In this document: piece after piece, positions 1,008 through 59,923 of the stretch
Numbering within the stretch: position 1 is the stretch's first letter
How the letters are laid out: each line of letters starts with the position of its first letter
IMG/VR virus record: IMGVR_UViG_3300044632_001398
Span: 1 to 64,000 of that record
DNA from: a virus
Length of the DNA stretch: 64,000 nt
Strand: one strand, 5' to 3'
Program-made: the position numbers and the translations under genes
Notes under the pieces: model-generated
Database searches by the model: none
Told to the model about the DNA's origin: nothing
What the model saw: only the letters and a program-made list of their open reading frames with translations

Positions 1008-3644
1008 ATGGCACAAATAGTAAAACTACGTAGAAGTAGTGTATCCGGTCAAAAACCGACCAATTCCAACTTACAATTAGGAGAGTTAGCATTAAACACA
1101 AGTGACGGTAAAATATTTATGGCCGTTTCAGGTGCATTATCCCCAACAGTTGAGGAAGCTATTGTGACCAACGCGTCGAATACAGGTTCAATAAATCTAA
1201 GTGGTAGTATCAGATTAAACGGTACAGAAACAGTTACAGGTTCAGTTTTAGTAAATGGACTTTTACAAGTAACAGGTAATACATCATTAACATCTTTAGT
1301 AATTTCAGGTTCAGACTCTGTGGCAAATGTTCAAGCATTTGTTCCATCAAGTTCAGTTTACAATGAAGCGAGTTTTAATACACCTGATAGAGTAGCTTCA
1401 GGTATAAGATTTAATTGGTCTAATGAGAATTGGACAATTGGTGCTGCAAGAGGTTTAACAACCGATATTGATGGTTTAGTTTTCAGTAGAAATGGTAATA
1501 GAAATTTATTACTTCATGAAAGTGGAGATATGTACCTTACAGGTGCATTAAGAGTTACAGGTTCATTATATTTGAATGGTGAAGTTGTCGGTACAGGTAA
1601 ATTAAATGAAACAGATTTTAACAATTATACATCATCTGTATCATCACAATTTGCTGGTAGTTCATCATATGCATTAACAGCATCACACGCGTTAAATGCG
1701 GTTATATTAGACGGACAAACAAAAACACAAAATTTTAGTACACCATCAACAACATGGTCATTCAATCACCAAATGGGTGAAAGATATCCATCAATTACTG
1801 TATTTGATAGTGATGGATATGTTGTTATACCAAGTGAAATACAAGCAATAGATGACAATAATTTAAATGTTTATTTCCCATCAAATCAAATAGGTTTGGT
1901 GAGTGTAACTGTGGGTGGTGCTGGAACTGCGGGTACTTCAGGAACAAGTGGTATTTCGGGAACAAGTGGAACATCAGGTGTTAATGGTACTAGTGGTACA
2001 TCAGGAACAAGTGGTGCTACTGGAACTTCAGGTAGTGACGGTTCTTCAGGTACTTCAGGTACAAGTGGTAGAGATGGTATAGGGGGTAAAAGTGAAACAT
2101 TTGCATCTGCAACAACTTGGTCTGTATTCCATAATTTAGATGAAAGATATCCTGTTGTTAATGTGTGGGATAACAATGGTAGAGTAATAATACCGAGTGA
2201 AATACAATCGGTTGATAATAATAATCTTAATGTTTATTTCTCATCACCTGTATCGGGTAGTGTAAACATCGTTAAGGGTGGACATTTAGTTAGTGGAGCG
2301 GTTGATTTATCATCAGCATTAAATGGAAGTGGAATTGTAAGTTCAAGTGTTCAAGGAACAAACTTAGGATTTGCAACCACAGGTTCAAATACATTTAAAG
2401 GTAACCAAACATTTAGTGGTTCTTTAATACCTGTTGGTAGTGGATCTTATGACTTAGGTAGTGAAACAAATCCATTTAGACACTTATATTTATCAAGTGC
2501 ATCATTATATATTGACGGACAAAAAGTTTTAGGTTCAACAAATCAAGAATTACAAATCACAACTGACAACGGTCAATCAATTAAGATTTTAGAAAGTGGT
2601 ACAGATACAATTACATTTCAAACTGCCGACGGAGACATTCAATTAAAATCATCTGGTGGCGGTAATATATTAATTGACCCAACAACGGGTTCGGTTGATG
2701 TTAGAGGAAATATTCTAATTCAAGATGGATTTAAAATATTAAGTTCAGGTGGTAATAGTGTTGTTTTTGCCGATGATATTATTGTATCGGGTTCGGCTAA
2801 TTTTACAAATGGTATTACAATTGGTGGTTTATCATACGCGTCTGCAACATCAGGAACAAGTGGTACATCAGGTATTAACGGAACAAGTGGTACTTCAGGT
2901 TCTAGTGGTTCATCTGGTAGTTCAGGTTCTAGTGGAGATTCAATATTTGCACAAACAGGGTCTATATGGTCTGCAACTAAAAATGTTGAAATCACCGGCT
3001 CATTAAAAGTGAAAGGTGCAATTACTGTGGATGAATTATATATGACATATGTAACTTCATCTGTTATGTATTCTTCAGGATCAACTAAGTTCGGTGACAC
3101 AAATGATGACTTACATCAATTCACAGGTAGTTTAAGTGTCTCAGGTTCATTATTAATTAATGGTACCTCATACACTGCTGCAACTTCAGGAACTAGTGGT
3201 AGTTCTGGTTCTTCAGGTACGTCAGGTTCTGGTGGAAGTTCTGGTACTTCAGGTTCTAGTGGAAGTTCTGGTACGTCAGGTTCTAGTGGAACATCAGTAT
3301 CGGTATCAGGAACTAATAATACGTTAGTTAAATTCACAAGTGCATCAACAGTAGGTAATTCAAGTATCACAGATAGTGGTACAGTTGTTTCTTTAACTAC
3401 CAATATGAATGTAACAGGTAGTATTATACCAGGTGGTGCAACGGGAACATATAATTTAGGTTCAGCAACTGCACGTTGGGGAACAATTTATACATCGGAT
3501 TTATCCTTAAACAACGGAATTGGTGATTGGACAATAGTGGAAGGTGAAGATGATTTATTCTTATATAATAATAAGAAGGGTAAAGTATACAAGTTTGCTT
3601 TAACCGAAGTTGACTCTAATGTTGCTACCCCTAAAAAATCTTAA
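1008..3644 (+). CDS. Large tail-fibre / adhesin protein with GTSG repeats
   Basis: This 878-residue protein starts with MAQIVKLRRSSVSGQ...NLQLGELALNTSDGKIF, an N-terminal module I know from many marine phage fibre proteins. Residues about 247-303 and 367-424 are a duplicated module (RYPxxxVxDxxGxVIIPSEIQxxDxNNLNVYF). Three Gly/Thr/Ser tracts, at about 306-354, 612-643 and 724-763, look like flexible or collagen-like spacers. 'YDLGS/YNLGS' modules appear near 480 and 810. The C-terminal 70 residues (WGTIYTSDLSLNNGIGDWTI onward) form a conserved-looking terminal domain. It begins the adhesion run and has a candidate late promoter 63 nt upstream. It is probably a trimeric virion fibre; the Ser/Thr tracts are candidate O-glycosylation sites (inference). 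Confidence 0.85.
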   Translation: MAQIVKLRRSSVSGQKPTNSNLQLGELALNTSDGKIFMAVSGALSPTVEEAIVTNASNTGSINLSGSIRLNGTETVTGSVLVNGLLQVTGNTSLTSLVISGSDSVANVQAFVPSSSVYNEASFNTPDRVASGIRFNWSNENWTIGAARGLTTDIDGLVFSRNGNRNLLLHESGDMYLTGALRVTGSLYLNGEVVGTGKLNETDFNNYTSSVSSQFAGSSSYALTASHALNAVILDGQTKTQNFSTPSTTWSFNHQMGERYPSITVFDSDGYVVIPSEIQAIDDNNLNVYFPSNQIGLVSVTVGGAGTAGTSGTSGISGTSGTSGVNGTSGTSGTSGATGTSGSDGSSGTSGTSGRDGIGGKSETFASATTWSVFHNLDERYPVVNVWDNNGRVIIPSEIQSVDNNNLNVYFSSPVSGSVNIVKGGHLVSGAVDLSSALNGSGIVSSSVQGTNLGFATTGSNTFKGNQTFSGSLIPVGSGSYDLGSETNPFRHLYLSSASLYIDGQKVLGSTNQELQITTDNGQSIKILESGTDTITFQTADGDIQLKSSGGGNILIDPTTGSVDVRGNILIQDGFKILSSGGNSVVFADDIIVSGSANFTNGITIGGLSYASATSGTSGTSGINGTSGTSGSSGSSGSSGSSGDSIFAQTGSIWSATKNVEITGSLKVKGAITVDELYMTYVTSSVMYSSGSTKFGDTNDDLHQFTGSLSVSGSLLINGTSYTAATSGTSGSSGSSGTSGSGGSSGTSGSSGSSGTSGSSGTSVSVSGTNNTLVKFTSASTVGNSSITDSGTVVSLTTNMNVTGSIIPGGATGTYNLGSATARWGTIYTSDLSLNNGIGDWTIVEGEDDLFLYNNKKGKVYKFALTEVDSNVATPKKS
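1927..2070 (+). repeat. GTSG-type repeat tract 1
   Basis: In-frame repetition of ggtacttcaggaacaagt-like 9-bp triplets encoding G-T-S/G-x-S. It is interrupted by isolated variants (GIS, GVNG, GATG, GSDG), which suggests an older, diverged repeat. Confidence 0.85.
2845..2935 (+). repeat. GTSG/GSSG repeat tract 2
   Basis: In-frame G-T-S and G-S-S triplets, opening with the segment SATSGTSGTSG and closing with GSSGDS. It shares its repeat words with tract 3 and with the fibre gene at 53545. Confidence 0.85.
3179..3296 (+). repeat. GTSG/GSSG repeat tract 3
   Basis: In-frame triplets following the segment INGTSYTAATSGTSG. Almost the same protein segment precedes the repeat tract in the fibre gene at 53545, so the two genes share a mobile fibre module. 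Confidence 0.85.
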
Positions 3645-46226: not shown

Positions 46227-46252
46227 AATTAAACAAAATAAACACACTATGA
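46223..46252 (+). pseudogene. Nine-codon stub bridging two genes
   Basis: ATG at 46223 overlaps the previous stop as ATGA. It reads MKLNKINTL and ends in TGA (46250-46252), overlapping the next ATG at 46249. The arrangement equals a complete tiny gene with both neighbours' overlaps kept, as expected if an intervening gene was deleted in its body. It could be chance. Confidence 0.25.
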
Positions 46253-46872: not shown

Positions 46873-46940
46873 TTTTAAAAAATCATTTATGGGAAGTATT
46901 TGAAAAACCATTTGCAAAAGATAAAAAATATTTAATTTAA
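46869..46940 (+). pseudogene. Duplicated 3' fragment of the sulfotransferase gene
   Basis: This 23-codon ORF encodes KNHLWEVFEKPFAKDKKY after an MIL start. It repeats the C-terminus of the sulfotransferase ending at 45624, with nearly identical DNA over about 50 bp (here ggaagtattt, there ggaagtgttt). The rest of that gene is absent. It sits exactly between two complete genes, so it is the remnant of a duplicated copy. Confidence 0.8.
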
Positions 46941-46941
46941 A

Positions 46942-47508
46942 ATGGTAATCACTATTATCGCAGAACCAAGAACTGGGTCAACTAATTTAGGTAAATGGTT
47001 TCTGAACAATAAAGAATTCACAGTATTATTTGAACCATTAAATAAAACTAGTACAAATTATAAAAAAGGTGAATCAGTTTATCAATGGAAATATAATACT
47101 AATCATTTTTTAATTAAGGAAATATATACACCAGATATATGTTTAACAGAATTGATACAATTTTCAGATAAAATCATAATACTTTATAGAGAAAATAAAA
47201 AAGAACAATTGGAATCTTGGTTAGTTGCCAGAGAAACCAATAATTGGCATGTAAAATGGAGTCATAATATGACAAGTGTGACAAATGGTAAAGAAAAAAT
47301 AAAATATTTTAATTCACTAACAAATACATTCAAATTAAATTATATAAATAATCCTAATTATTTTAAAATTTCATATGAAGAATTATATTATAGTAATGGA
47401 TTTCAAAAAATAATAGATTATATAAATTTAGATTGTGTAAAAAATGAAAATTTTCCACAAGGTCAAAAATATAGAATATATGATAGTAAAACAACAAGTA
47501 TTATTTAG
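46942..47508 (+). CDS. Sulfotransferase-like protein
   Basis: 188 residues. ITIIAEPRTGSTNLGKWFL (about 3-21) is a canonical PAPS phosphosulfate-binding loop (P-R-T-G-S-T). EFTVLFEPLNKTSTNYK, KIIILYRENKKEQLESWLVA and KISYEELYYSNGFQKIIDYI match short phage/bacterial sulfotransferases. It is compact (about 190 residues) but complete in these motifs. The C-terminal 29 nt overlap the next gene. Confidence 0.75.
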   Translation: MVITIIAEPRTGSTNLGKWFLNNKEFTVLFEPLNKTSTNYKKGESVYQWKYNTNHFLIKEIYTPDICLTELIQFSDKIIILYRENKKEQLESWLVARETNNWHVKWSHNMTSVTNGKEKIKYFNSLTNTFKLNYINNPNYFKISYEELYYSNGFQKIIDYINLDCVKNENFPQGQKYRIYDSKTTSII

Positions 47509-47977
47509 TAAAGAAGAATGTGAATTGATTATAACTCTACCAAAAACAAATCAACAATATTGGGAATCAAAGGATAGAAGTTATAATTCACTTGTACTGC
47601 AGTATAACGAAAATACAGAGTGGATATTTAATAGATTGAAAAATTTTTTTGAATTAGAAACGGAAATAAAGATTTTTAAATTAAAACCATACATACATTT
47701 TCATAAATATGTAAGTGGGGATTGGTTTGGTAGACATAACGATATTAGAGGTGACAGAATTTCTGCAGTGGGTGTGTTACTGAATGATGATTTTAATGGT
47801 GGAGATTTCAAATTATACAATCCAACAGAAGTGATTTTAAATAAAGTGGTTGGAAACACATACATATTTGATGTTACAATTGACCACGAAATAACACCAA
47901 TTTTAAATGGTGAGAGATATTCATTACTTTGGTTTTTAGAAAGAGACAATATTAAATTTAATAATAAATTGATATAA
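47480..47977 (+). CDS. 2OG-Fe(II) oxygenase, prolyl-4-hydroxylase-like
   Basis: 165 residues from the ATG at 47480. That start aligns its MIVKQQVLFSKEECELI with the starts of the two paralogues at 43168 and 43698; an earlier in-frame start at 47444 would add residues unlike them. DWFGRHNDIRGDRISAVGVL has H-x-D (about 86-88), DFNGGDFKLYNP the central strand, and TIDHEITPILNGERYSLLWF the distal His and Arg. Confidence 0.8.
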   Translation: MIVKQQVLFSKEECELIITLPKTNQQYWESKDRSYNSLVLQYNENTEWIFNRLKNFFELETEIKIFKLKPYIHFHKYVSGDWFGRHNDIRGDRISAVGVLLNDDFNGGDFKLYNPTEVILNKVVGNTYIFDVTIDHEITPILNGERYSLLWFLERDNIKFNNKLI

Positions 47978-47978
47978 A

Positions 47979-48494
47979 ATGGATGATATTATACAATATA
48001 AAATAACTAAAGAAAAATTCATTAAAATTGAACATAAATCTCATTATAAATTAAAATATGTAGATTTAAATAATTATTTAGATTATACCGAAGATTTTAA
48101 TATAATAATAGATTTATTGCATAAACAATTAAAATGGGACGGTATACCAACATTGGAAGAATGTTATCAAAGATTTAATTCTAATTCATTTTGTTTATTG
48201 TTTTATTATAATGAAAAATGTATAGGTTGGAATTGGGGTAATCCAAATGTAACTATTAATTGGATTGACATTGATAAAAAATTAAATAATAATGAATTGT
48301 ATTTAGGTGGATGTTTTGTTTCTAAATTAGTTGAAAGACCGGCAGACGCTGGTATTCAAAATTATAATATGTTTTTTGATTATTGTTTAAATATTTTAAA
48401 TCCAAATGTAATGTATGGATATTGTGACAATTGGAATAAGGCTGCAATAAGAATCAATATAAGTAATGGATGGGAACAGTTTAATTTTTTATAA
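47979..48494 (+). CDS. GNAT-like acetyltransferase
   Basis: 171 residues. FCLLFYYNEKCIGWNWGNPN and ELYLGGCFVSKLVERPADAG fit GNAT beta4 and beta5 with the pyrophosphate loop region; MYGYCDNWNKAAIRINISNG then WEQFNF fits the closing 'N.aA......GF' segment. It could N- or O-acetylate an amino sugar, but it is divergent and the acyl-CoA loop is not canonical. Confidence 0.55.
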   Translation: MDDIIQYKITKEKFIKIEHKSHYKLKYVDLNNYLDYTEDFNIIIDLLHKQLKWDGIPTLEECYQRFNSNSFCLLFYYNEKCIGWNWGNPNVTINWIDIDKKLNNNELYLGGCFVSKLVERPADAGIQNYNMFFDYCLNILNPNVMYGYCDNWNKAAIRINISNGWEQFNFL

Positions 48495-48503
48495 CATAAT
48501 TTA

Positions 48504-48554
48504 ATGAGAATATTAATTATTGCAATCGGTAGAACAAAAAGAAAACTATTATAA
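48504..48554 (+). pseudogene. N-terminal stub of a lost gene
   Basis: MRILIIAIGRTKRKLL then stop. The first 11 residues read like the start of a sulfotransferase such as the 46942 protein (ITIIAEPRTGST), and the frame then stops at once. It lies in a short intergenic gap before a new promoter-like box, and is probably a remnant left by deletion. Confidence 0.35.
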
Positions 48555-48584
48555 ATTTTATTTGATTTTTTATTAGATTTTCAC

Positions 48585-48591
48585 TATATTA
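48585..48591 (+). promoter_or_regulatory. Candidate TATATTA promoter box
   Basis: TATATTA after a T-rich stretch with an upstream tatttgatttttta, ending 6 nt before the ATG at 48598. Confidence 0.35.
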
Positions 48592-48597
48592 ATAGTA

Positions 48598-51327
48598 ATG
48601 AAAATCTTAGCACACACTTGTTTTATTGGAACCACCGGATACGCAAATCATGCACGTTCCTTTTTTACTGCACTTAATAAACATCACACTGTAAAGGTTA
48701 GGAATTTAACTATTGGTAATGGTTGGAAAGGTATGAATGATACTCCACACGATGATGAACCATATATTACTGGTGAGATGAAGGACATGTTAATTCAACA
48801 AACCCTTAATAATCAAGATGGTACGAGAACTGATTTCAATATGTATGGATATAAAGGTGATTTTACACCCGATGTTCATATTGTTTTAATGGAGACCAAT
48901 AATTATTATTTCTATGACAATTATGAAGGGTACAAGATAGCGTATAACGTTTGGGAATCAACACGTTATCCAGAAGATTTCTTTAGAAGATTATTTTATT
49001 TTGATGAAGTATGGGTACCAACTCAATGGCAATTTGATTGTTTAGTTGAACAAGGATACCCATCAGAAAAGATTTTTATTGTACCTGAAGGTGTTGATGT
49101 TGAAACATTTAAACCAATTAAAAAATCACTTAAAAAATCTACCACTAAATTTAGATTTTTATATTTTGGTAGATGGGATTATAGAAAGGGAACTACCGAG
49201 GTGTTAAAGACTTTTGGTGAAACTTTTAAGGATAGAACCGATGTTGAATTAATTGCGTCGGTTGAAAACCCATATCCATATGATGGACTCAAGAGTACGG
49301 AAGAAAGAGTTAAAACATATGGAATTGATGATACTAATATCAAGTTCATTAAATTCACATCAAGAGAAGATTATGTGAAATATTTACAAATGGGTGATGT
49401 ATTCATATCATGTGCTCGTAGTGAAGGATGGAATCTACCATTAATTGAGGCGATGTCATGTGGAACACCATCAATATATTCTAATTGGGGAGGACAACTA
49501 CAATTTGCAAAAGATAAAGGTATACCCGTTAAAATATCTCATTTAAGACCTGCCAACATAGAACATAAAGAATGGCCAGGTGAATATTGTGAACCAGATT
49601 GGAAAGATTTAGGTGAACAAATGTTAGATGCTGTTAAAAACTACTCAGAATATAAATCAAAATCAATAAAAGACTCAAAAGAAATTCACAAGAATTTTAA
49701 TTGGGACACAGTTGCAAAAGGGGCGTCAGATATATTAACAAGACATTCCAAACCGTTTGCATTTGTTACTACAGGTAATATGGGATATATGCCTGTGATT
49801 GAGAAATTAGTACAATCGCTATTAGAATTTTCAGAACAAAAGATAATTGTTTATGGAGTTGATTGTGAAGTTCCATTTGATTATCCAAATGTTATCAAAA
49901 GAACCATAAATCCATCAAAAATATCTGAACACGATAAATGGTATTGGAAACAATATGCTTGTTTAGAATCATTAAAAGAAGGATTTGAATACCTTATATG
50001 GATTGACGGAGATGTTGTGGTAAATCATAATATAGATACTGTAAGAAAATATTTTAAACAAGTTGGAAGATATCCATTATCCGATATTCACGTTCAAGAA
50101 GAGTTCTTTGGGATGTATGATAATGGAACTAAATCACAATTGTTTAATGAAGAACTTGCAAAGAAATGGGGTATTGAAAAAAGACAACCATATATGCACG
50201 TTTGTTTCTTCATTTACAATAATGGGTCAGAAGCATTCTTTGATAGTATTTTACACACTTACAAAACATTAATGGTAGAAGAGCCAGAAAACTATAAGAA
50301 ATATTTCTTATGGAATGATGAAGGTATTGATAATGCAATTAGGTGGAAAAATGGATATACAAATCACTTACCACTATCAAACTTTGATACATCATCGTAT
50401 GATGGTGATGAAGGGTTTATTGATAAGACATTACATCAATTTTATAAGTTTTGGAATGAAGAAGGACCACAAAATTTTGATAGAATATTTGGTTATCAAT
50501 ATATTCCTAAAGATAAATCTGATATAATCTATTTTCATGGAAATAAAAATGCTGAGATATCTGATAAGATGATTCAGTTTATTAAGATGCAAAGAGATAA
50601 TTCATTTTATAAATCAATGTGTTTTTATACGGATGTTTATAAATTAGAAAATTTTGAATCTCTATTTGAATATGAAGGTGGAACAATCGATGTAGCAAAC
50701 AAGTTTGGTTGGGCAACTGCAATATTCCACGAGATTTTTAACTTAAGAGATTACTACCACAATAGAATTAAAAGAATACATGAAGGAGATATTGTAGTTG
50801 ATTTAGGTGGAAATATGGGGATATTCAATAGATGGGCATATAGTCAAGGTGCTAAGCGAGTAATTTCTTTTGAACCTGACAAAAGATACTTTAAATTGTT
50901 ATCATTAAATACGGACCCACGTTCTTTATTGTTTAATGGTGCAGTTAGTAATCAAGTAGGTGAATTAGAATTACATGAAAGTTCTCATTTAGGTGGATCT
51001 AATGTTTTTGGAACACAGGAAAATGCGAAGAAATATAAGGTAAGAACATACACTTTAGATTATCTATTTGAGTGTGGTTTAATTGAACATATTGATTTTC
51101 TAAAAGTTGATATTGAGGGTGCTGAACATTTAGCATTTGGTGGAATTTCTGATGAGAATTTAATGAAAGTTAAAAACATCGCAATGGAGTATCACCATGG
51201 ACATTTTAATTACGATGAGGAACTTAGAAATAATTTCATCACTAAGATGAATAGTTTAGGATTTAATTCTTACTTGGTGTTTATGGGAAATAATAATGAA
51301 TTACAGATGATTTACTTCTGGAGATAA
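48598..51327 (+). CDS. Three-domain enzyme: GT4 glycosyltransferase, GT-A glycosyltransferase and FkbM methyltransferase
   Basis: 909 residues. Residues 1-390 are a GT-B (GT4) enzyme: KILAHTCFIGTTGYANHARS, VWVPTQWQFDCLVEQGY, FLYFGRWDYRKGTTEVLKTF, and RSEGWNLPLIEAMSCGTPSI with the donor-binding E-x(7)-E-like segment. Residues about 395-640 form a GT-A domain (KPFAFVTTGNMGYMPVIEKL, FEYLIWIDGDVVVNHNIDTV with D-x-D near 469). Residues about 725-905 are an FkbM-type methyltransferase (IVVDLGGNMGIFNRWAYSQG, VISFEPDKRYFKLLSLN, FLKVDIEGAEHLAFGG). It could add two sugars and an O-methyl cap in one polypeptide. First gene of its transcription unit. Confidence 0.82.
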   Translation: MKILAHTCFIGTTGYANHARSFFTALNKHHTVKVRNLTIGNGWKGMNDTPHDDEPYITGEMKDMLIQQTLNNQDGTRTDFNMYGYKGDFTPDVHIVLMETNNYYFYDNYEGYKIAYNVWESTRYPEDFFRRLFYFDEVWVPTQWQFDCLVEQGYPSEKIFIVPEGVDVETFKPIKKSLKKSTTKFRFLYFGRWDYRKGTTEVLKTFGETFKDRTDVELIASVENPYPYDGLKSTEERVKTYGIDDTNIKFIKFTSREDYVKYLQMGDVFISCARSEGWNLPLIEAMSCGTPSIYSNWGGQLQFAKDKGIPVKISHLRPANIEHKEWPGEYCEPDWKDLGEQMLDAVKNYSEYKSKSIKDSKEIHKNFNWDTVAKGASDILTRHSKPFAFVTTGNMGYMPVIEKLVQSLLEFSEQKIIVYGVDCEVPFDYPNVIKRTINPSKISEHDKWYWKQYACLESLKEGFEYLIWIDGDVVVNHNIDTVRKYFKQVGRYPLSDIHVQEEFFGMYDNGTKSQLFNEELAKKWGIEKRQPYMHVCFFIYNNGSEAFFDSILHTYKTLMVEEPENYKKYFLWNDEGIDNAIRWKNGYTNHLPLSNFDTSSYDGDEGFIDKTLHQFYKFWNEEGPQNFDRIFGYQYIPKDKSDIIYFHGNKNAEISDKMIQFIKMQRDNSFYKSMCFYTDVYKLENFESLFEYEGGTIDVANKFGWATAIFHEIFNLRDYYHNRIKRIHEGDIVVDLGGNMGIFNRWAYSQGAKRVISFEPDKRYFKLLSLNTDPRSLLFNGAVSNQVGELELHESSHLGGSNVFGTQENAKKYKVRTYTLDYLFECGLIEHIDFLKVDIEGAEHLAFGGISDENLMKVKNIAMEYHHGHFNYDEELRNNFITKMNSLGFNSYLVFMGNNNELQMIYFWR

Positions 51328-51337
51328 AAAATATAAA

Positions 51338-53485
51338 ATGGGATATACACAATTTACTGAAGATGTTTTTATAGTTGACTGTTGGACAGACACAATAGAA
51401 AAAGAAAATACATTAATAGAGTTACTTAATAGACTAAAGGTTTATAATTCACCAATTATATTGTGCGGACATTATCCAATTAAACCTGAAATACAAAAGT
51501 TAGTTGATTATTATTTGTACGACGCTAACAATGATATATTATTAGAAAAAGATTTTGAAGAGTATGGTGTTAATAGTGATAGATGGACATCTATGGGTGA
51601 ATTGACTATTACTAACAAAACGGAATTCCATCACGACTATGCAATTTGGATTACTATGAAGAATGCATTTGCATTAGCTGAAAGATTAGGAAAAAAATAT
51701 ATTCACTTTTTGGAGTTTGATAACTTACCAGATGAAGTACAATACCGACAATCTTTTATGGAATACGTTAGACATAACGATGCGGTTGTATACGAATATT
51801 CTCAAGGTTCAACTAAAGAAAGTAATCCATACAGTTCAACGTATATCTTCTCAATTAAAACGGATATTGCAAATAGATTAATTAATACAATTAATTCTAA
51901 AGAAGAATATTTTAAAGGTAAACCTGATAGATGGCAATTAGAGAAGGTATTCTATCAAACACTTAAGAGTATAACTAATAGTATTTTTATTAGTAAGTAC
52001 ATTCCTAACGATAATGAATTGAATATATTTGCAGCGTGGAATAGAAACGGAATAATTAGAAATGGTGCGAGATTCCAAACATATTTAGCTGTTGATGAAT
52101 ATAAACAATTGTTTATACATTTCATTTCGGGATTCTCAGAAAAACCTACAGATAAAGATTACATAGTTGAAGTCGTATGTGGTCAATATAAGAGATTTCA
52201 TTTAGTTAAGAAAGGAGAGTTCCATTTGGATAAAATCGGCGAATACATTAAAGGAGAAACTGTAAAAGTTTATTACCAAGGTATTGAAGTCTTCAAACAA
52301 GAATTAAAAGATGAATTTGAAGAGTTTAGAAGAAAGAATAAACTAACCAGAAACACCTTAATTAAAAAACCATCTAACCCAAATAAACAAACTATAGTAC
52401 ATTTTGTTGACGGTCCTTATGTTGAAATTAAAGAAGAGGGAGATTTTTTATATAATGTTCAATTCATTAATAAAAAAAATAACACTATTGAGTTTGAAAT
52501 TAATTTAAAGAGTAATCATTGGGCAAGATGTAATAAGAAATACTATGTTGATTGGTTAGTTAAGATAAAAGGTATTGATAATGACTATTACCACGAACAC
52601 AGTTTAAATTTAGAGAATAGAAGGGTAATGATATGTTTTGAATCTAAATCTTTGGGAGATAATTTAGCGTGGGTACCATATGTTGAAAAATTTAGACAAG
52701 AACATAAGTGTCATGTGATATGTTCAACATTTAATAATAATTTATTTAAAAGTGAGTACCCAAATATTGAATTTGTTTTACCTGGTAGTACTGTAGATAA
52801 CGTTTATTCACTTTATCGTTTAGGGGTATTTTATGATGATAAAAGAAAGATTGAGGAATCAAGACATCCAAATGACCCCAAAAAAGAACCATTGATGAAA
52901 GTCGGTTCGGATATATTAGGATTAAATTATGAGGAATTAACACCAAAATTACCAACCTATGGAAAAGATAAGAAAAAGTTAATATCAATCGCCACTCATT
53001 CAACGGCTCAAGCAAAATATTGGAATAACCCAACAGGTTGGCAAGATGTGGTTGATTATTTGATAGGTGAGGGATATGAAGTTAGATTATTATCAAGAGA
53101 AGAAGATGGGTATATGGGTAATAAGAACCCTAAAGGTGTGATTCAACAACCAAATGGACCATTAGAGGATATTATTAAGGTTTTACAGGAATCTGAACTG
53201 TTTATTGGTATTAGTAGTGGTTTAAGTTGGTTATCATGGGCATCTGGAACACCAACAGTTATTATTTCGGGTTTTACCGATGAAGATTTGGAACCAAAAA
53301 TAGGAGTTACACGTATTATTAATAAAGAAGTTTGTAATAGTTGTTGGTCTAATTATGAGTTTGACCCAGGTGATTGGAACTGGTGCCCTGTTCATAAAGG
53401 TACAAAAAGACAATTTGTGTGTTCAAAAACAATCACTTCAAAGGATGTTATAGAAAAAATTCGTAAATTATTAGGAAAAAAATAA
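51338..53485 (+). CDS. Bifunctional protein with autotransporter O-heptosyltransferase-like (GT9/BAHT-type) C-terminus
   Basis: 715 residues. The N-terminal about 220 residues are GT-A-like (DYAIWITMKNAFALAERLGK, KYIHFLEFDNLPDEV). From about 435 it resembles GT9-type autotransporter heptosyltransferases (TibC/Aah group): MICFESKSLGDNLAWVPYVE, ISIATHSTAQAKYWNNPTGW, ESELFIGISSGLSWLSWASG, and a four-Cys site with C666, C669, C683 and C695. TibC-type enzymes bind iron through a Cys finger and glycosylate Ser residues of beta-helical surface proteins. It sits 59 nt before the start of a TSG-repeat fibre gene, making that fibre an attractive acceptor (inference). Confidence 0.78.
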   Translation: MGYTQFTEDVFIVDCWTDTIEKENTLIELLNRLKVYNSPIILCGHYPIKPEIQKLVDYYLYDANNDILLEKDFEEYGVNSDRWTSMGELTITNKTEFHHDYAIWITMKNAFALAERLGKKYIHFLEFDNLPDEVQYRQSFMEYVRHNDAVVYEYSQGSTKESNPYSSTYIFSIKTDIANRLINTINSKEEYFKGKPDRWQLEKVFYQTLKSITNSIFISKYIPNDNELNIFAAWNRNGIIRNGARFQTYLAVDEYKQLFIHFISGFSEKPTDKDYIVEVVCGQYKRFHLVKKGEFHLDKIGEYIKGETVKVYYQGIEVFKQELKDEFEEFRRKNKLTRNTLIKKPSNPNKQTIVHFVDGPYVEIKEEGDFLYNVQFINKKNNTIEFEINLKSNHWARCNKKYYVDWLVKIKGIDNDYYHEHSLNLENRRVMICFESKSLGDNLAWVPYVEKFRQEHKCHVICSTFNNNLFKSEYPNIEFVLPGSTVDNVYSLYRLGVFYDDKRKIEESRHPNDPKKEPLMKVGSDILGLNYEELTPKLPTYGKDKKKLISIATHSTAQAKYWNNPTGWQDVVDYLIGEGYEVRLLSREEDGYMGNKNPKGVIQQPNGPLEDIIKVLQESELFIGISSGLSWLSWASGTPTVIISGFTDEDLEPKIGVTRIINKEVCNSCWSNYEFDPGDWNWCPVHKGTKRQFVCSKTITSKDVIEKIRKLLGKK

Positions 53486-53515
53486 AAACTATAAAATTAA
53501 TTGTAAAAATGGCAG

Positions 53516-53523
53516 TATTTATA
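53516..53523 (+). promoter_or_regulatory. Candidate late promoter TATTTATA
   Basis: TATTTATA in the context agtatttata, the same as at 40853. It ends 21 nt before the ATG of the fibre gene at 53545 and abuts an inverted repeat. Confidence 0.45.
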
Positions 53524-53546
53524 TGAGTATAACAACATACTCATAT
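53521..53546 (+). repeat. Perfect 10-bp inverted repeat over the fibre gene start
   Basis: atatgagtat (53521-53530) and atactcatat (53537-53546) pair perfectly around a 6-nt loop aacaac. The right arm includes the first two bases of the ATG at 53545, so an mRNA hairpin could mask initiation. It has no T tail, so it is not a terminator. Confidence 0.7.
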
Positions 53547-54768
53547 GAATATATTTGATCCATTTGTCTCAGGTAATCTCTCCGTATCAGGTTCGGTAAA
53601 TATATCGGGCTCAATGACAGTAGGAGGAACGATTAACGCCACTATTAGTGGTACGACATCAGAAGCACTAAACTCACAAAAATTAAATAACCAAGAGTCG
53701 TCCTATTACGCTATTACGGGAAGTAACTTATTTAAGGCGAACCAAACAATTAGTGGTTCGATAATCCCCGCCGTTACTAATGCTTACGATTTGGGTGACG
53801 CAACACATTGGTGGAAGGACATCTACGTATCAACAGGGTCCATCTTCATTGGTGGAATTAAAGCTATCAGTACAAACTCCGATGGTACAATACAAGTAGG
53901 TACTCAAGTTGTACAAACTTCAGCGAGTTTGGCTTTAGTAGGTCTTCCAGTTCCTCCAACAGGTTCTGCAGGATCAAGTCAAAGTACATTAGTAGGTAGT
54001 CAAAATATTACAGGTAGTCAAGCCATCACAGGTAGCATGTCTGTTAGTGGTAGTATGGTTGTAACTGGTTCATTGTTCATTAATGGAACATCATATACCG
54101 CAGCAACATCAGGAACATCTGGTTCTTCAGGTACTTCAGGTTCTAGTGGTTCATCAGGTACTTCAGGTTCTAGTGGTTCATCAGGTACTTCAGGTTCTAG
54201 TGGTTCATCAGGTACTTCAGGTTCTAGTGGTTCAAGTGGAACATCTGGTTCTTCAGGATCATCTGGTTCTTCAGGATCATCTGGTACAACAACGGTAACA
54301 AATGCGTCCGCTGATCGTGTAATGACAAGTGAAGGTGGAGTAACTATAAATGGTGAGGCAAACTTAACATTTAACGGAACAACTTTATATGTAAACGGAG
54401 CGTTAGGTGTAGGAACATCAACACCAACAACAACAGGTTTGATTAGAGCAACAAACGACGTTATTGCTTATTTTTCATCTGATGAAAGATTAAAAGAAAA
54501 TTTTGAACCAATTGTAAATTCTTTAGAAAAACTACAACAAATTAATGGTTATAGTTTTGATTGGGTTCCTATGGAAGGTATTCACGAAAATGAAGGTCAC
54601 GATATCGGTGTTAAAGCACAAGAAATTGAGGCTGTTTTACCTGAATTAGTTACAACAAGAGATAATGGTTATAAAGCCGTGAAGTATGAAAAATTAGTAG
54701 CTTTATTGATTGAAACAAATAAAGAATTATTAAAGAGAGTTGAAGCTTTAGAATCTAAAATAAAATAG
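53545..54768 (+). CDS. Tail-fibre protein with TSG repeats and Peptidase_S74 intramolecular chaperone
   Basis: 407 residues. The N-terminus MNIFDPFVSGNLSVSGSVNI is beta-strand/Ser-rich. NAYDLGDATHWWKDIYVSTG is the fibre module also found in the 1008 gene. Residues about 187-248 are T-S-G/S-S-G repeats. A beta-rich segment (VMTSEGGVTINGEANLTFNG) follows. From about 311 comes Peptidase_S74: SSDERLKENFEPIVNSLEKL, YSFDWVPMEGIHENEGHDIG, KAQEIEAVLPELV, KAVKYEKLVALLIETNKELL, ending in a coiled coil. S74 domains trimerise the fibre and self-cleave at the Ser of S-D-x-R-L-K, so the mature fibre probably ends near 311. Confidence 0.88.
   Translation: MNIFDPFVSGNLSVSGSVNISGSMTVGGTINATISGTTSEALNSQKLNNQESSYYAITGSNLFKANQTISGSIIPAVTNAYDLGDATHWWKDIYVSTGSIFIGGIKAISTNSDGTIQVGTQVVQTSASLALVGLPVPPTGSAGSSQSTLVGSQNITGSQAITGSMSVSGSMVVTGSLFINGTSYTAATSGTSGSSGTSGSSGSSGTSGSSGSSGTSGSSGSSGTSGSSGSSGTSGSSGSSGSSGSSGTTTVTNASADRVMTSEGGVTINGEANLTFNGTTLYVNGALGVGTSTPTTTGLIRATNDVIAYFSSDERLKENFEPIVNSLEKLQQINGYSFDWVPMEGIHENEGHDIGVKAQEIEAVLPELVTTRDNGYKAVKYEKLVALLIETNKELLKRVEALESKIK
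54130..54237 (+). repeat. Tandem 27-bp repeat, four copies
   Basis: The unit starts ggtacttcaggttctagt and continues ggttcatca. Copies at 54130-54156, 54157-54183 and 54184-54210 are identical; the fourth (54211-54237) differs only in its last codon (AGT for TCA, both Ser). It encodes G-T-S-G-S-S-G-S-S. DNA-level identity shows recent expansion. Confidence 0.93.
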
Positions 54769-54780
54769 TTAAATTACTGA

Positions 54781-54816
54781 TACTCACCACGTCCTAAAAA
54801 AATGTGGTGAGTATTT
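54781..54816 (+). terminator. Hairpin after the S74 fibre gene, probable terminator
   Basis: Perfect 10-bp stem tactcaccac (54781-54790) / gtggtgagta (54804-54813), 13-nt loop, then only TTT. The T tract is weak for an intrinsic terminator, and its right arm runs into a TATTTATA box, so the site may combine termination and re-initiation. Confidence 0.6.
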
Positions 54817-54819
54817 ATA
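54812..54819 (+). promoter_or_regulatory. Candidate late promoter TATTTATA
   Basis: TATTTATA overlaps the end of the hairpin stem by two bases and lies 33 nt before the ATG at 54853. Confidence 0.42.
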
Positions 54820-54852
54820 AAGACATTTGTGTTTAAATTATAAGAATTAGTT

Positions 54853-55071
54853 ATGGGTACAGTACCAGCAACAGGATCAGAAGTAAGTATGGGTAGAATT
54901 AGTGTAGTTTTAGGTTTAGCAGCTACACCAGGACAAGTTCAAGTAGGACTTAACTCAACATTGGGTGTTGGTCGTAACCGTTCATATTCAGGTGTTGCAA
55001 GTATTCCTTCAGGTTCCGAATCAGAAGAAAGTGCGGATTTCGGTGGTTTATCGGGTTCAGGTACATACTAA
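54853..55071 (+). CDS. Small Gly/Ser-rich structural-type protein
   Basis: 72 residues, MGTVPATGSEVSMGRISVVL...DFGGLSGSGTY. Rich in Gly, Ser and Val with no Lys-rich region. I recall similar 60-75-residue proteins near fibre genes of environmental phages, often opening with PATG-S/E-x-SMG; probably a virion or fibre accessory. It has its own candidate late promoter. Confidence 0.6.
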   Translation: MGTVPATGSEVSMGRISVVLGLAATPGQVQVGLNSTLGVGRNRSYSGVASIPSGSESEESADFGGLSGSGTY

Positions 55072-55097
55072 TATTTCCTTTTTTCATTTATTTTTAT

Positions 55098-55104
55098 TAT
55101 ATTA
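55098..55104 (+). promoter_or_regulatory. Candidate TATATTA promoter box
   Basis: TATATTA after a T-rich run, ending 5 nt before the ATG at 55110. Same layout as the boxes before 7990, 39851 and 48598. Confidence 0.35.
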
Positions 55105-55109
55105 TACGT

Positions 55110-55553
55110 ATGAATCTTACGTATAAGAAATACCCCTCAAAATACGAATTAGAATACGTTAAATGGAACGGTATTAACTTTGATAGAGAAAGACTCATCA
55201 AGTTTGTTAAACGTCTCAAATTGACGTATTTTTTGTCTTTTATACCCTATTATAGAAGAGAACATCAAATGTTAACCGAAATACTTGATTCATACGATAA
55301 AGACCGTATTGAGGGTTTATTGAATGGGAATCAAGAAGTATTAAAAAGATGTCTTATTGAAAAATGGGCTAGAATTGCATCAACTGACATTCTATTAACA
55401 AATACGTATTCAAGATTAACATTTACTACGATATCTAATTTACCAATCAAAGATTATCAACTCCTAATGAAAAGAGTTGAAGAGATGGTTGAGGCGGGAA
55501 GAAATTTAACATATCAAAGTAATAAAATAACAGATAACACACCCGGTACATGA
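55110..55553 (+). CDS. Hypothetical helical protein
   Basis: 147 residues, Lys/Arg-rich and mostly helical, with KFVKRLKLTYFLSFIPYYRR near the start and LLMKRVEEMVEAGRNLTYQS near the end. No family recognised. It overlaps the following glycosyltransferase by 4 nt and has its own promoter-like box, so the pair is a small operon. Confidence 0.55.
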   Translation: MNLTYKKYPSKYELEYVKWNGINFDRERLIKFVKRLKLTYFLSFIPYYRREHQMLTEILDSYDKDRIEGLLNGNQEVLKRCLIEKWARIASTDILLTNTYSRLTFTTISNLPIKDYQLLMKRVEEMVEAGRNLTYQSNKITDNTPGT

Positions 55554-56185
55554 GTAAATCAATCAACAATAGTTCAATGTGGGAAGTAAAACCACTTAAA
55601 TTATCAATATTAGTTCCAACAAGAGATACAGTTCACAGTCAATTTGCTTATTGTTTAACACAGTTGTATAATTTAACAAGAGAGGCTGGTATAGATGCTT
55701 ATTTGTTCTTTGATTCCAGTACTATTTTATTAAATCAAAGGAACAATCTTGTTAAAAAGGCTAAGGAAGTAAATTCAGATTATATTCTTTGGTTAGATAG
55801 TGATATGACATATCCAGCAACCACAGCTCTACGTCTTTTAGAACACAATAAGGACATTGTTGCATGTAACTATAGTAAACGTACCAAACCACTTAAAACA
55901 GTTGCATATACCAATTTAAATGATTGGGACAGTTGGGTACATATGGAACCCCAAGATGAACTTGTTAAAGTTGAAGGTGTTGGTATGGGATGTATGTTAA
56001 TGAAATTAGATATTTTTGAAAAACTTCAAAAACCTTACTTTGAATTTAGATACAAAGAAGATACCCAAGATTATTTCGGAGAAGATTTTATACTGTTAGG
56101 TAAATTGAGAGAACAAGGATACGATGTTTTTATTGATACTGTTTTAAGTATGGATATAAAACATCTTGGTATCTACGCTTTTTAA
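55550..56185 (+). CDS. GT-A type glycosyltransferase
   Basis: 211 residues. LKLSILVPTRDTVHSQFAYC and NQRNNLVKKAKEVNSDYILW lead into LDSDMTYPATTALRLLEHNK with D-S-D. IVACNYSKRTKPLKTVAYTN and VEGVGMGCMLMKLDIFEKLQ, then DYFGEDFILLGKLREQGYDV match the short GT-A enzymes common in phages (Anp1/Mnn9-like style). Its stop overlaps the convergent gene's stop: both TAA codons lie within TTAA at 56182-56185, leaving no spacer. Confidence 0.75.
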   Translation: MSKSINNSSMWEVKPLKLSILVPTRDTVHSQFAYCLTQLYNLTREAGIDAYLFFDSSTILLNQRNNLVKKAKEVNSDYILWLDSDMTYPATTALRLLEHNKDIVACNYSKRTKPLKTVAYTNLNDWDSWVHMEPQDELVKVEGVGMGCMLMKLDIFEKLQKPYFEFRYKEDTQDYFGEDFILLGKLREQGYDVFIDTVLSMDIKHLGIYAF

Positions 56186-57282
56186 AGTTTGTTCTTAATT
56201 TCTATTTTAAAGTTACCGATTTTATATTCTCCAACATCGTACTTAGGTAATGTTGCTCTTAATACGAACAATAAATTAAAATCATTATCAGTTAATTCAT
56301 CAGCGTAAACCATTACATCAACATTATCAGTATCAATAAATTTTGATTTTAAATCGTATCGTGTATTTTTTTGTTCAAGTTCAATATATTCATCAGGACT
56401 TTCACCTAAATTAATTTTATTAAAGAAAGGTTCAATATCAAATAAACGACTTTTATTGTTAATTGTTAAACCCATTGTGTAAGTTTTAAATTCAAAATTT
56501 TCTTGATTTTGATAATTCAATTGATTAAATGTATGAATTGGTATTCCCCATTTTCTAACAAAGTTTCTATTTGATGCAAATTCAATATTACCACGATTAT
56601 CTTTCATTTCTTCACTAAATCTTGATGTCTGCGAAACAAAATGATAAACAATTGCAGAATCACAAGTTTTTAATTTATAACCTTTTAGTTTCGCACGAAT
56701 TAAAAAGTCATCATCTTCACAAAAACATGGTACAAAACTAAAACCATCAAAACCATTTAAATCTTGAAATACTTTCTTGTATGCTGACATGAAGAACACC
56801 GCACCATCATATAAATTATTACTTCCATTCCATTGTTGAACGTAGTTGTTAAAATGAAAATTATCAAAGTCCTCAAATGAACTTCCTAAATCTAATAATA
56901 CTTTACCTGGTCTTTGATGTCCTTTGAATATTGGAGGTTCAATTGTTGTGTAAGATAAAATCATATCATCAGTAAGAAGTCTTTCAATTGATTCTAAAAA
57001 TCCTTCACCAATAACCATATCATTATGAATAAGAACAATTTTTTCAGTATCAACTAAGTCTATACCCGCATTATATGTTTCTGAAAATGTTAATCTAGTA
57101 TCATCATGGAAAAACGATAGTTCATTATCTTCTAATGATTCCAACCATTCTTTCGTTCCGTCAGATGAACCACCACTACTGATAACTAATGGTGACGTAG
57201 GATATATCTCACGTAATCTTTTATAACATTCTTTTGTTAATTCTAATTTATTGTAAACCGCCAGTACGAAACTTATATTCAT
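56182..57282 (-). CDS. GT2 family glycosyltransferase
   Basis: 366 residues. ISFVLAVYNKLELTKECYKR and VISSGGSSDGTKEWLESLED are the GT2 start; TEKIVLIHNDMVIGEGFLES holds the H-N-D-M variant of D-x-D. YDGAVFFMSAYKKVFQDLNG and FVPCFCEDDDFLIRAKLKGY supply the acceptor-site E-D-D. The C-terminal 100 residues (LINNKSRLFDIEPFFNKINL-like) are an extra domain of unknown role. Last gene of the minus run. Confidence 0.78.
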   Translation of the reverse strand: MNISFVLAVYNKLELTKECYKRLREIYPTSPLVISSGGSSDGTKEWLESLEDNELSFFHDDTRLTFSETYNAGIDLVDTEKIVLIHNDMVIGEGFLESIERLLTDDMILSYTTIEPPIFKGHQRPGKVLLDLGSSFEDFDNFHFNNYVQQWNGSNNLYDGAVFFMSAYKKVFQDLNGFDGFSFVPCFCEDDDFLIRAKLKGYKLKTCDSAIVYHFVSQTSRFSEEMKDNRGNIEFASNRNFVRKWGIPIHTFNQLNYQNQENFEFKTYTMGLTINNKSRLFDIEPFFNKINLGESPDEYIELEQKNTRYDLKSKFIDTDNVDVMVYADELTDNDFNLLFVLRATLPKYDVGEYKIGNFKIEIKNKL

Positions 57283-57737
57283 TTTATTATTTTTTTTATT
57301 ATTGGTCTATTTGTCACCCATATATAGTACTTATCTTCAAACTTTTTAATAAATTCATCTAAAAAATCTTTATTTGTAAAATAAATCCCATCAAATATAT
57401 AAAATGATTCATTTCTTTTGTATATAAAATTATAACAATAGTTAATAAAATCTATTTTATTGTTATTAACCTCGTCAACAAAATGATTTATGGATTTCAA
57501 AGACATTTTAAATCCTTTTTTATTTACCATATCATTGATACTTTTTATAGGTAAATTTTTATCAACTGTAATTTGGTCTAAACTAACATAATAAGATTTA
57601 GGTATAGTTTTTAACACAAAACTTAAATTAGTTTTTCCGTCCATCGGTTCACCCGATACTATCATAAGTGTCGGCATTTTAGGTTTATAAAACCCTCTGG
57701 GTCTTATAAAGTGGTCTTCAATACTAATTATGGACAT
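57279..57737 (-). CDS. P-loop NTPase/kinase-like protein
   Basis: 152 residues. TLMIVSGEPMDGKTNLSFVL is a Walker A loop (G-E-P-x-D-G-K-T). ESFYIFDGIYFTNKDFLDEF may act as Walker B. KYYIWVTNRPIIKK ends it. Size and loop suggest a small-molecule kinase, but no signature separates families. It lies between two GT2 genes with 4- and 14-nt overlaps. Confidence 0.6.
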   Translation of the reverse strand: MSIISIEDHFIRPRGFYKPKMPTLMIVSGEPMDGKTNLSFVLKTIPKSYYVSLDQITVDKNLPIKSINDMVNKKGFKMSLKSINHFVDEVNNNKIDFINYCYNFIYKRNESFYIFDGIYFTNKDFLDEFIKKFEDKYYIWVTNRPIIKKIIK

Positions 57738-58302
57738 ATAGTGGTTTATTTATTTTTTTAATAGTTCCGTGAGGATATTTTCTCAGGTATTCCTCAACAA
57801 ATAAACCATCAGATTGTTCATATGTAGTATCTAATTTTATATTTTTTGCCAAATCTGTTTTAGACATAAAATTACCAATATCAATAGCACCAAGTTTTGG
57901 CATCGAGTTAATATGAAGATATTGTTGTTGCGTCCAATTATGTATCATATTACAATATACAAAATGAGTTTTATCGTCCACTGAATTTAAAAAATCATCT
58001 ACGAATACCGGCATATAATAATTATCGTCGCCAGTCATTACGACCCATTCTTCAGTTGCATTTTGTAATCCATAATTTCTTGGGGTATGCCCCCAATCTT
58101 TATGTGGACCATTTAATTCTGTAAATCTTATTCTATCATCACCGTTAAAATAATCTTTTACTTTTTGATAACCATCATAAACAGCATCCGCAACAACGTG
58201 TATTTTCCAATTAGGTGATGACTGAGAAAATATTGAACTAATGACACCCATCAATTGATTAGGTCTATTATAAGTTGGGATTATAAATTCTATTTTACTC
58301 AT
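57724..58302 (-). CDS. GT2 family glycosyltransferase
   Basis: 192 residues. IEFIIPTYNRPNQLMGVISS is the classic GT2 opening, NWKIHVVADAVYDGYQKVKD the nucleotide region, and WVVMTGDDNYYMPVFVDDFL the D-x-D equivalent (GDDNY). It is short for GT2, lacking the usual C-terminal extension. One-base overlap with the epimerase upstream. Confidence 0.75.
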   Translation of the reverse strand: MSKIEFIIPTYNRPNQLMGVISSIFSQSSPNWKIHVVADAVYDGYQKVKDYFNGDDRIRFTELNGPHKDWGHTPRNYGLQNATEEWVVMTGDDNYYMPVFVDDFLNSVDDKTHFVYCNMIHNWTQQQYLHINSMPKLGAIDIGNFMSKTDLAKNIKLDTTYEQSDGLFVEEYLRKYPHGTIKKINKPLYVHN

Positions 58303-59300
58303 TACTTTTTAGTTTTCCAAAATGAATATATTCCTTTATCTAGTTCATAAGAAGGCCAAACAAAACGTTCTCTAATTGGTTGAGTTTTAACCCATTCCCA
58401 CATTTTTGTTAATCCCTCTTTTAAATCTGTCTTATGTTCAAAATCCAATAAATCAACTGATTTTTGCCATGTTGGTATTGAATGTTTAACTTCGTGTCTA
58501 CCCTCAAAATATTTTACTTCTCCTCCACCAACAACTTCACGTAATGTTTCATTTGCCTCATTGATGGAGTATTCTTTAATCCCACCTAAATTTATTATTT
58601 GTTTAGATGCTCTCATATCCTGTGACGCCTTCCACAATGGTTCAATACTATCATCAATATAACTAAATGCTCTTGTTTGGGTACCATCACCAAATATTGT
58701 CATTGGTTCATTTATAGTATGTTGATACATCCATATACCTAACACATTTCTATATTTGTCCCATATATTCTGTTTAACACCATATACATTGTGAGGTCTA
58801 ATAATACACCAATCAAGTCCGTGATGTTCACCAGCAATCTGTATATCCATTTCACAACCATATTTAGCCACACCATACGGGTCAATAGGTTTCTGTTGTT
58901 GATCCTCATCAAATATGCCACCATAACCATGACCGTACACAGCTAAAGTTGATGTAAATACTAAACGTTTAATGTCGTATCTAATACATTCGTTAATAAT
59001 ACGAGATGTTGCAACCAAATTATTTTGATAGTTGTAACTCCTAATAAATGGTGATAAACCCTCCGCCGCATATGCCGCTAAATGATAAACATAATCAAAT
59101 TGATGTCTTTCAAAACATTCTTGAATATTTCCATTCACCAAATTCATTTCCCATAATTCTACTTTAGGATTCACATTTTCTCTATAACCACCACTCATAT
59201 CGTCTATTCCAACAACATGAACTTCAGGATGATTTTCAATAATGTAATCAGATAGTCTTGAACCCAATAAACCAGCAACTCCTGTAATTAAAATTTTCAT
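58302..59300 (-). CDS. UDP-glucose 4-epimerase-like SDR
   Basis: 332 residues. ILITGVAGLLGSRLSDYIIE is the NAD loop; VYHLAAYAAEGLSPFIRSYN, RLVFTSTLAVYGHGYG and a full active site in DPYGVAKYGCEMDI (Y-x-x-x-K) follow. CIIRPHNVYGVKQNIWDKYR and FGDGTQTRAFSYIDDSIEPL match UDP-hexose 4-epimerases. It would interconvert nucleotide sugars feeding the flanking GT2 enzymes. Confidence 0.84.
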   Translation of the reverse strand: MKILITGVAGLLGSRLSDYIIENHPEVHVVGIDDMSGGYRENVNPKVELWEMNLVNGNIQECFERHQFDYVYHLAAYAAEGLSPFIRSYNYQNNLVATSRIINECIRYDIKRLVFTSTLAVYGHGYGGIFDEDQQQKPIDPYGVAKYGCEMDIQIAGEHHGLDWCIIRPHNVYGVKQNIWDKYRNVLGIWMYQHTINEPMTIFGDGTQTRAFSYIDDSIEPLWKASQDMRASKQIINLGGIKEYSINEANETLREVVGGGEVKYFEGRHEVKHSIPTWQKSVDLLDFEHKTDLKEGLTKMWEWVKTQPIRERFVWPSYELDKGIYSFWKTKK

Positions 59301-59908: not shown

Positions 59909-59923
59909 AATATATTATAGTAA

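What the first reader, a model, noticed from the sequence alone, without database searches (positions are those of the whole stretch)
51338..54768. Autotransporter-type O-heptosyltransferase homologue next to a Ser/Thr-repeat fibre
The C-terminal half of the 715-residue protein resembles TibC/Aah enzymes, including four Cys (666, 669, 683, 695) in a finger like the known iron site. Those enzymes glycosylate Ser on repetitive beta-helical surface proteins. The next gene encodes a fibre with 60 residues of T-S-G/S-S-G repeats. The pair suggests a phage counterpart of autotransporter glycosylation, with the repeats as acceptor array.
Basis: partly seen in the sequence, partly recalled or inferred. 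Interest (0 to 1): 0.78.

Follow-up and report, generated by a model that had tools for sequence, protein, structure and literature searches.

The report
Phage sugar-transferase paired with collagen-like fibre
This virus of bacteria carries an enzyme of the kind that attaches sugars to bacterial surface proteins, and genome comparisons suggest that it sugar-coats the serine/threonine-rich, collagen-like stretch of the virus's own tail fibre, a pairing that also turns up in bacterial chromosomes and that I found described nowhere.

Summary
ORF 51338-53485 (715 aa) carries a C-terminal TibC/Aah-type domain (TIGR04414, 287 bits, cut-off 200; TibC is the top structural match) with all four iron-finger cysteines and the catalytic Asp. 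The next gene, 59 bp on, is an S74-chaperone fibre with 20 Gly-(Thr/Ser)-Ser triplets, matched as collagen-like.

The proposed enzyme-acceptor link was tested and holds as an association. The pair is syntenic in about 35 related viral contigs. Of 50 viral contigs picked only for such arrays, 25 carry the enzyme; of 84 random ones, 1 does, and it is the only one of the 84 with an array. Methanotroph, Polaromonas and Acidiferrobacterales genomes carry the enzyme beside small exported proteins rich in these triplets, whereas classical BAHTs (bacterial autotransporter heptosyltransferases) sit beside autotransporter-like ORFs.

Two corrections. The donor is probably not simply ADP-heptose: TibC's ADP-recognising Arg286 is lost in 83/83 close phage relatives. 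And the N-terminal half is a second, GT-A-like domain.

Best reading: phage-encoded O-glycosylation of a collagen-like fibre by a BAHT-related enzyme; new variant of a known kind. Modification itself is unproven.

The parts
48598..51327 (+). 909-aa multi-domain protein: GT4 glycosyltransferase, a middle region with a DGD motif (by eye), and C-terminal FkbM methyltransferase; probable chain extension and capping
   Evidence: Pfam/PHROG/NCBIfam hits; found upstream of the enzyme in nearly all related phage loci
51338..53485 (+). 715-aa two-domain protein O-glycosyltransferase (whole gene)
51338..52363 (+). N-terminal GT-A-like domain, residues 1-342
   Evidence: AlphaFold pLDDT 90; weak but consistent GT-A matches; Glu126 and Asp128 invariant in 33 sequences
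52400..53470 (+). BAHT (TibC/Aah-type) domain, residues 355-711
   Evidence: TIGR04414 287 bits; TibC E=3e-54; Foldseek TibC E=5.6e-34
52658..52660 (+). Codon of Asp441, counterpart of TibC catalytic Asp110
   Evidence: alignment, invariant in 83 phage and 87 genome-contig sequences
53171..53173 (+). Codon of Ile612, counterpart of TibC Arg286 (adenine contact), lost here
   Evidence: V/I/L/A/T in 83 of 83 phage sequences
53333..53422 (+). Iron-finger region, Cys666, 669, 683 and 695
   Evidence: aligned with TibC Cys339/342/358/370; conserved in all but incomplete rows of the close phage set
53545..54768 (+). 407-aa tail-fibre-type protein, proposed acceptor
   Evidence: S74 and collagen Pfam matches; PHROG tail/baseplate fibre matches
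54106..54285 (+). Array of 20 (T/S)-S-G triplets, residues 188-247, proposed acceptor sites
54478..54654 (+). Peptidase_S74 intramolecular chaperone domain of the fibre, residues 312-370
   Evidence: E=8.5e-17
1008..3644 (+). 878-aa second array-bearing structural-type protein (triplet arrays at residues 303-362, 616-645 and 728-763), possible further acceptor

Best explanation
The 715-aa protein is a two-domain protein O-glycosyltransferase, and the Gly-(Thr/Ser)-Ser triplet arrays of the phage's own fibres are its acceptor. The C-terminal BAHT domain probably puts a first sugar on array serines (collagen-like Gly-X-Y) while the fibre is still in the host cell, modifying many sites as TibC does. 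The N-terminal GT-A-like domain and the neighbouring GT4/FkbM protein probably extend and cap the glycan. The sugars would stabilise and shield a proline-poor collagen-like shaft and alter how it meets the host surface. Shown here: family, fold, active-site residues, synteny, co-occurrence. Inferred: catalysis, acceptor, order of steps, purpose. Unknown: the sugar and the nucleotide.
For: Family and fold. Catalytic Asp, phosphate- and sugar-binding residues, thumb-tip hydrophobics and iron Cys kept: against PMC4358343. Synteny enzyme-fibre in about 35 viral loci. Arrays in 16 of 18 records chosen for the enzyme. Enzyme in 25 of 50 contigs chosen for arrays, 1 of 84 random contigs, and that one is the only random contig with arrays. 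Bacterial chromosomes: enzyme next to small exported array proteins in methanotrophs, Polaromonas and Acidiferrobacterales, in several orientations; arrays nearly confined to that place in several of these genomes; 5 of 5 against 9 of 146 Methylococcales genomes. Classical Arg286 BAHTs lack such neighbours (1 of 75 rows).
Against: No modification has been measured. Half of the array contigs (14 of 31 even at 45 kb or more) show no such enzyme, though they are fragments. In the 45-47% identity phage clade the array gene is not adjacent. A few Methylococcales genomes have Ser/Thr arrays without the enzyme. TibC was shown to modify Ser in beta-helical passenger repeats and not Thr; no Gly-X-Y acceptor is known for this family. 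Arg286 loss means the donor may differ.
Confidence: 0.72

Rival explanations
1. The enzyme glycosylates a virion protein, but another part or another protein (beta-structured shaft, baseplate proteins); the arrays are flexible spacers that merely travel with it.
For: TibC acts on beta-helix repeats; in one phage clade other structural genes, not an array fibre, follow the enzyme gene.
Against: In bacteria the common element of the partner is the array: the Polaromonas partner (102 aa) is almost only signal and array, and the Acidiferrobacterales one is lipobox, array and an acidic tail; phages without adjacency still have arrays.
Confidence: 0.14
2. The enzyme and its neighbours remodel host or self polysaccharide (LPS, capsule), and the arrays are unrelated.
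For: The window is rich in glycan genes: many GTs, epimerases, methyltransferases; GT9 relatives build LPS core.
Against: TIGR04414/TibC similarity is far above LPS heptosyltransferases (287 against 26 bits; E 5.6e-34 against 1.7e-8); the iron finger and thumb of protein-modifying BAHTs are kept; specific association with arrays in phages and bacteria.
Confidence: 0.08
3. The association is a lineage effect: a few families of large aquatic phages happen to hold both genes, with no functional link.
For: Most phage loci belong to related large aquatic phages; random samples are small; a terminase-based lineage control gave mostly short contigs and could not be used.
Against: The tree shows divergent phage branches and several bacterial lineages with the pair; chromosomal adjacency in several orientations; size-matched contrast 17/31 against 1/54.
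Confidence: 0.06

Closest known systems
TibC / AAH bacterial autotransporter heptosyltransferases (BAHT; TIGR04414; PDB 4RAP, 4RB4; PMC4358343)
   Same: C-terminal domain: fold, catalytic Asp, phosphate- and sugar-binding residues, hydrophobic thumb tip, four iron-finger Cys; neighbour gene encodes a repetitive surface protein rich in Ser/Thr
   Different: Arg286 (adenine contact) lost; extra N-terminal GT-A-like domain; in a phage; partner is a collagen-like S74 fibre, not a beta-helical autotransporter; falls outside the clade of autotransporter enzymes
Glycosylated bacterial collagen-like spore proteins with a dedicated transferase (C. difficile BclA3 and SgtA, PMC7157674; Bacillus BclA)
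   Same: Gly-X-Y surface protein with hydroxyl residues served by its own glycosyltransferase
   Different: Not a phage; spore surface; SgtA was not compared here with the BAHT domain
Mycobacteriophage virion glycosylation (Freeman et al. 2023, cited in PMC12619734)
   Same: Glycans on phage structural proteins, acting as a shield
   Different: Capsid and tail-tube C termini as acceptors; not an array fibre; enzymes not compared here
Hydrothermal-vent worm cuticle collagen (Mann et al. 1996, cited in PMC11766948)
   Same: Glycosylated hydroxyl residues stabilise a Gly-X-Y triple helix in place of hydroxyproline
   Different: Animal protein; analogy of function only

Membership tests
BAHT sequence family (TIGR04414) | Score above the curated cut-off of 200 bits | tested here: met
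   287 bits
BAHT sequence family (TIGR04414) | TibC fold: N-terminal beta-barrel plus GT-B catalytic domain | tested here: met
   AlphaFold model, TibC chains as first 21 PDB matches, TMt up to 0.86
BAHT sequence family (TIGR04414) | Four iron-finger cysteines (TibC 339, 342, 358, 370) | tested here: met
   C666, C669, C683, C695; metal itself not testable
BAHT sequence family (TIGR04414) | Catalytic Asp110 and Thr226, Lys230, Trp305 | tested here: met
   D441, T556, K560, W631
BAHT sequence family (TIGR04414) | Hydrophobic beta-hairpin thumb tip (F265, V266) and F368 used in dodecamer contacts | tested here: met
   Y592, M593, F693
Autotransporter heptosyltransferase (function) | Arg286, basis of ADP-sugar specificity, described as highly conserved and needed for activity in TibC | tested here: not met
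   Ile612; V/I/L/A/T in 83 of 83 close phage sequences
Autotransporter heptosyltransferase (function) | Partner gene encodes a beta-helical autotransporter | tested here: not met
   Partner is an S74 fibre with collagen-like array
Autotransporter heptosyltransferase (function) | Transfers heptose to Ser; forms a dodecamer | not testable with these tools
   needs biochemistry
Collagen-like protein (PF01391) | Gly-X-Y repeats above Pfam's gathering score | tested here: met
   33.6 bits, cut-off 27.2
Collagen-like protein (PF01391) | Forms a triple helix | not testable with these tools
   array has almost no proline
S74-chaperone tail fibre/spike | C-terminal Peptidase_S74 domain | tested here: met
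   61.6 bits, cut-off 22
GT-A glycosyltransferase (N-terminal domain) | GT-A fold with acidic metal-binding motif | tested here: inconclusive
   consistent but weak fold matches, TMt mostly 0.4-0.5; E126 and D128 invariant; no family hit

The most novel reading that the evidence does not exclude
BAHT-type enzymes are at root a widespread system for O-glycosylating collagen-like Gly-(Ser/Thr)-Ser arrays, spread by large phages and present in bacteria with small exported array proteins; the well-known autotransporter glycosylation (AAH, TibC) is one derived branch that changed acceptor, while the window's phage clade changed donor nucleotide. The tree is compatible with this but is rooted only at its midpoint.
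Probability: 0.35. Interest if true: 0.86.

Novelty: new variant of a known kind. Interest (0 to 1): 0.78.

Why it matters
Ser/Thr-Gly arrays recur in fibres of large aquatic phages, and no function for them turned up in the papers held here. A dedicated glycosyltransferase would explain their residue make-up (nearly all Ser/Thr, almost no Pro), would mean that these virions present glycosylated mucin- or collagen-like shafts, and would extend BAHT chemistry from beta-helical autotransporters to Gly-X-Y proteins. The bacterial pairs (for example in methanotrophs) are small two-gene systems in which it can be tested directly, and the enzymes could become tools for glycosylating recombinant collagen-like proteins.

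Tried and rejected
Heptose biosynthesis in the window: the 141-aa cytidylyltransferase (59924-60349) and the epimerase (58302-59300) score below the curated cut-offs of the sugar pathways considered; the first is best with glycerol-3-phosphate cytidylyltransferase and second with HldE-C, the second with GalE above HldD, so no heptose pathway can be claimed. Arg286 loss as a marker of array association: rejected as a rule, because 6 of 22 divergent array-linked phage sequences keep Arg, as does the Acidiferrobacterales enzyme L093. Terminase-based lineage control: relatives lay mostly on short contigs, not used. Near-identical phage records: none by megablast. PHROGs has no family for the enzyme. 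Promoter and terminator scans of 48400-55300 gave no more sites than shuffles. Literature searches for a link between arrays and BAHTs in phages found nothing.

Full report
What is there. The window is part of a 74,301-base virus record. Three genes lie head to tail on the + strand: 48598-51327 (909 aa; GT4 and FkbM methyltransferase domains), 51338-53485 (715 aa) and 53545-54768 (407 aa), separated by 10 and 59 bases. The 715-aa protein matches the Aah/TibC model TIGR04414 over residues 355-711 with 287 bits (cut-off 200) and TibC itself at 3e-54. An AlphaFold model (pLDDT 88) finds TibC chains as its first 21 PDB matches (E to 5.6e-34, TMt to 0.86), far ahead of LPS heptosyltransferases (1.7e-8).

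Active site. The TibC residue numbers come from PMC4358343. The two hydrophobic residues of the thumb tip (F265, V266) and F368, which take part in TibC dodecamer contacts, are Y592, M593 and F693. One residue is not kept: Arg286, which contacts adenine N1, was given as the basis of ADP specificity, and whose Ala mutant loses activity, is Ile612 here and V/I/L/A/T in 83 of 83 phage enzymes, while 75 of 87 enzymes from genome contigs keep Arg. This argues against simply naming the donor ADP-heptose. It is not a rule for all array-linked enzymes: 6 of 22 more divergent phage sequences keep Arg.

N-terminal half. Residues 1-342 have no Pfam match. Modelled alone (pLDDT 90) they match GT-A sugar-nucleotide enzymes weakly but consistently (alpha-1,3-galactosyltransferase, GlcAT-P, and also the collagen glycosyltransferases LH3 and COLGALT1; E about 1e-5), with Glu126 and Asp128 invariant in 33 sequences. 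I take it as a second transferase domain; this is inference. The matches to collagen enzymes are at fold level only and are not used as evidence for the acceptor.

The fibre. The 407-aa protein has 20 uninterrupted triplets at residues 188-247, a Pfam collagen match, a C-terminal S74 chaperone domain and PHROG matches to tail and baseplate fibres. Over about 6,000 triplets in related phage loci, X is Ser or Thr in 96%, Y is Ser in 79%, and Pro is below 1% at either place. A second array protein lies at 1008-3644.

Does the pair mean anything? Four tests. (1) Synteny: of 79 related viral loci, about 35, mostly at 59-75% identity, have the order GT4/FkbM protein, enzyme, array/S74 fibre; in the 45-47% clade another gene follows. 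(2) Presence: 16 of 18 records chosen for the phage-type enzyme contain arrays of five or more triplets, including ones without adjacency and Microcystis phage Mel-JY01; the two negatives are records of 33 and 54 kb. (3) Reverse sample: of 50 viral contigs chosen only for an 8-triplet array, 25 hold the enzyme, all at E below 1e-60. Of 84 contigs chosen with arbitrary short DNA words, one holds the enzyme and one holds an array, and it is the same 344-kb contig. Fisher p is 3e-12 for all and 1e-8 for contigs of 45 kb or more. These p-values ignore relatedness and describe effect size only. (4) Bacteria: the genome-contig search brought enzymes from Methylococcaceae, Polaromonas, Acidiferrobacterales and Schekmanbacteria that lie close to a protein with the same triplets: 41, 13 and 105 bp upstream on the same strand (L085, L086, L089), 110 and 8 bp away and convergent (L087, L084), one gene away (L093), 5 kb away (L088). 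A follow-up in Methylococcales gave three more cases (L163, L165, L166). In several of these genomes the arrays occur essentially nowhere else, although G003 and G144 have a further array elsewhere. Among 151 Methylococcales genomes, arrays are found in 5 of 5 with the enzyme and in 9 of 146 without, and several of those nine are repeats that do not read as Ser/Thr triplets. Most bacterial partners begin with what looks by eye like a signal peptide or lipobox; the Polaromonas one has 102 residues, almost all signal and array.

Contrast with classical BAHTs. Of 75 enzyme rows with Arg286, one (L093) has an array in its locus, and many have a very large Gly/Asn/Ser/Thr/Val/Ala-rich ORF directly alongside, as expected of autotransporters. 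In a tree of 73 sequences the autotransporter-type enzymes form one clade with TibC (support 100/99), while the methanotroph/Polaromonas enzymes (100/100) lie among the phage enzymes. The root is a midpoint, so the idea that the autotransporter enzymes are a derived branch of an array-modifying family is a possibility only.

Mechanism. Best supported: the BAHT domain starts O-glycosylation on array serines in the host cytoplasm before assembly, and the GT-A-like domain and the 909-aa neighbour extend and methylate the chain. That sugars on hydroxyl residues can replace hydroxyproline in stabilising a triple helix is known from a worm cuticle collagen (Mann et al. 1996, cited in PMC11766948). 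Steps shown: homology, residues, association. Steps inferred: everything enzymatic. My estimate that the arrays are the acceptor is about 0.75; that the sugar is heptose, about 0.25.

Novelty. Phage virion glycosylation and glycosylated collagen-like proteins are both known kinds; a BAHT-type enzyme paired with Gly-(Ser/Thr)-Ser arrays was not found in the papers held, a library without most subscription literature and without bioRxiv preprints. I rate it a new variant of a known kind.

Limits.

Noticed in passing
window 3-880 (+), frame 3, open at the window edge: About 200 residues of Pro/Thr/Ser repeats ([13 protein letters not shown]...), a mucin-like stretch that could be another O-glycosylation array.
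   Followed up: no
L002 4356-5486 and 10001-12124: One phage carries two BAHT genes, a stand-alone 376-aa one and the fused 707-aa one, 58% and 75% identical to the window's.
   Followed up: no
L085 6899-7780, L086 6933-7904, L089 6850-7800, L163 2799-3596, L165 538-1266, L166 684-1406: Methylococcales array proteins: apparent signal peptide, triplet array, then domains without a convincing Pfam match; function unknown.
   Followed up: partly
window 9761-11191 (+): Fusion of a GT7 galactosyltransferase-type domain with a LamG-type lectin domain.
   Followed up: no
window 20272-28984 (-), 38027-39694 (+), 43698-48494 (+), 55550-63891: Dense glycan and modification gene set: epimerases (one fused to a 2OG oxygenase), a NodU-like carbamoyltransferase (below cut-off), 2OG-oxygenase-like proteins, several GT2/GT4 enzymes.
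   Followed up: partly
window 12596-15391 and 16150-17601 (+): Two radical-SAM proteins, the second above the NCBIfam cut-off for twitch-domain radical SAM, unusual cargo beside the glycan genes.
   Followed up: no
L090 299-9089: A contig binned as a Thermoplasmatales archaeon holds a phage-like array protein and an 804-aa fused BAHT that groups with a phage sequence; probably a viral contig in the bin.
   Followed up: no
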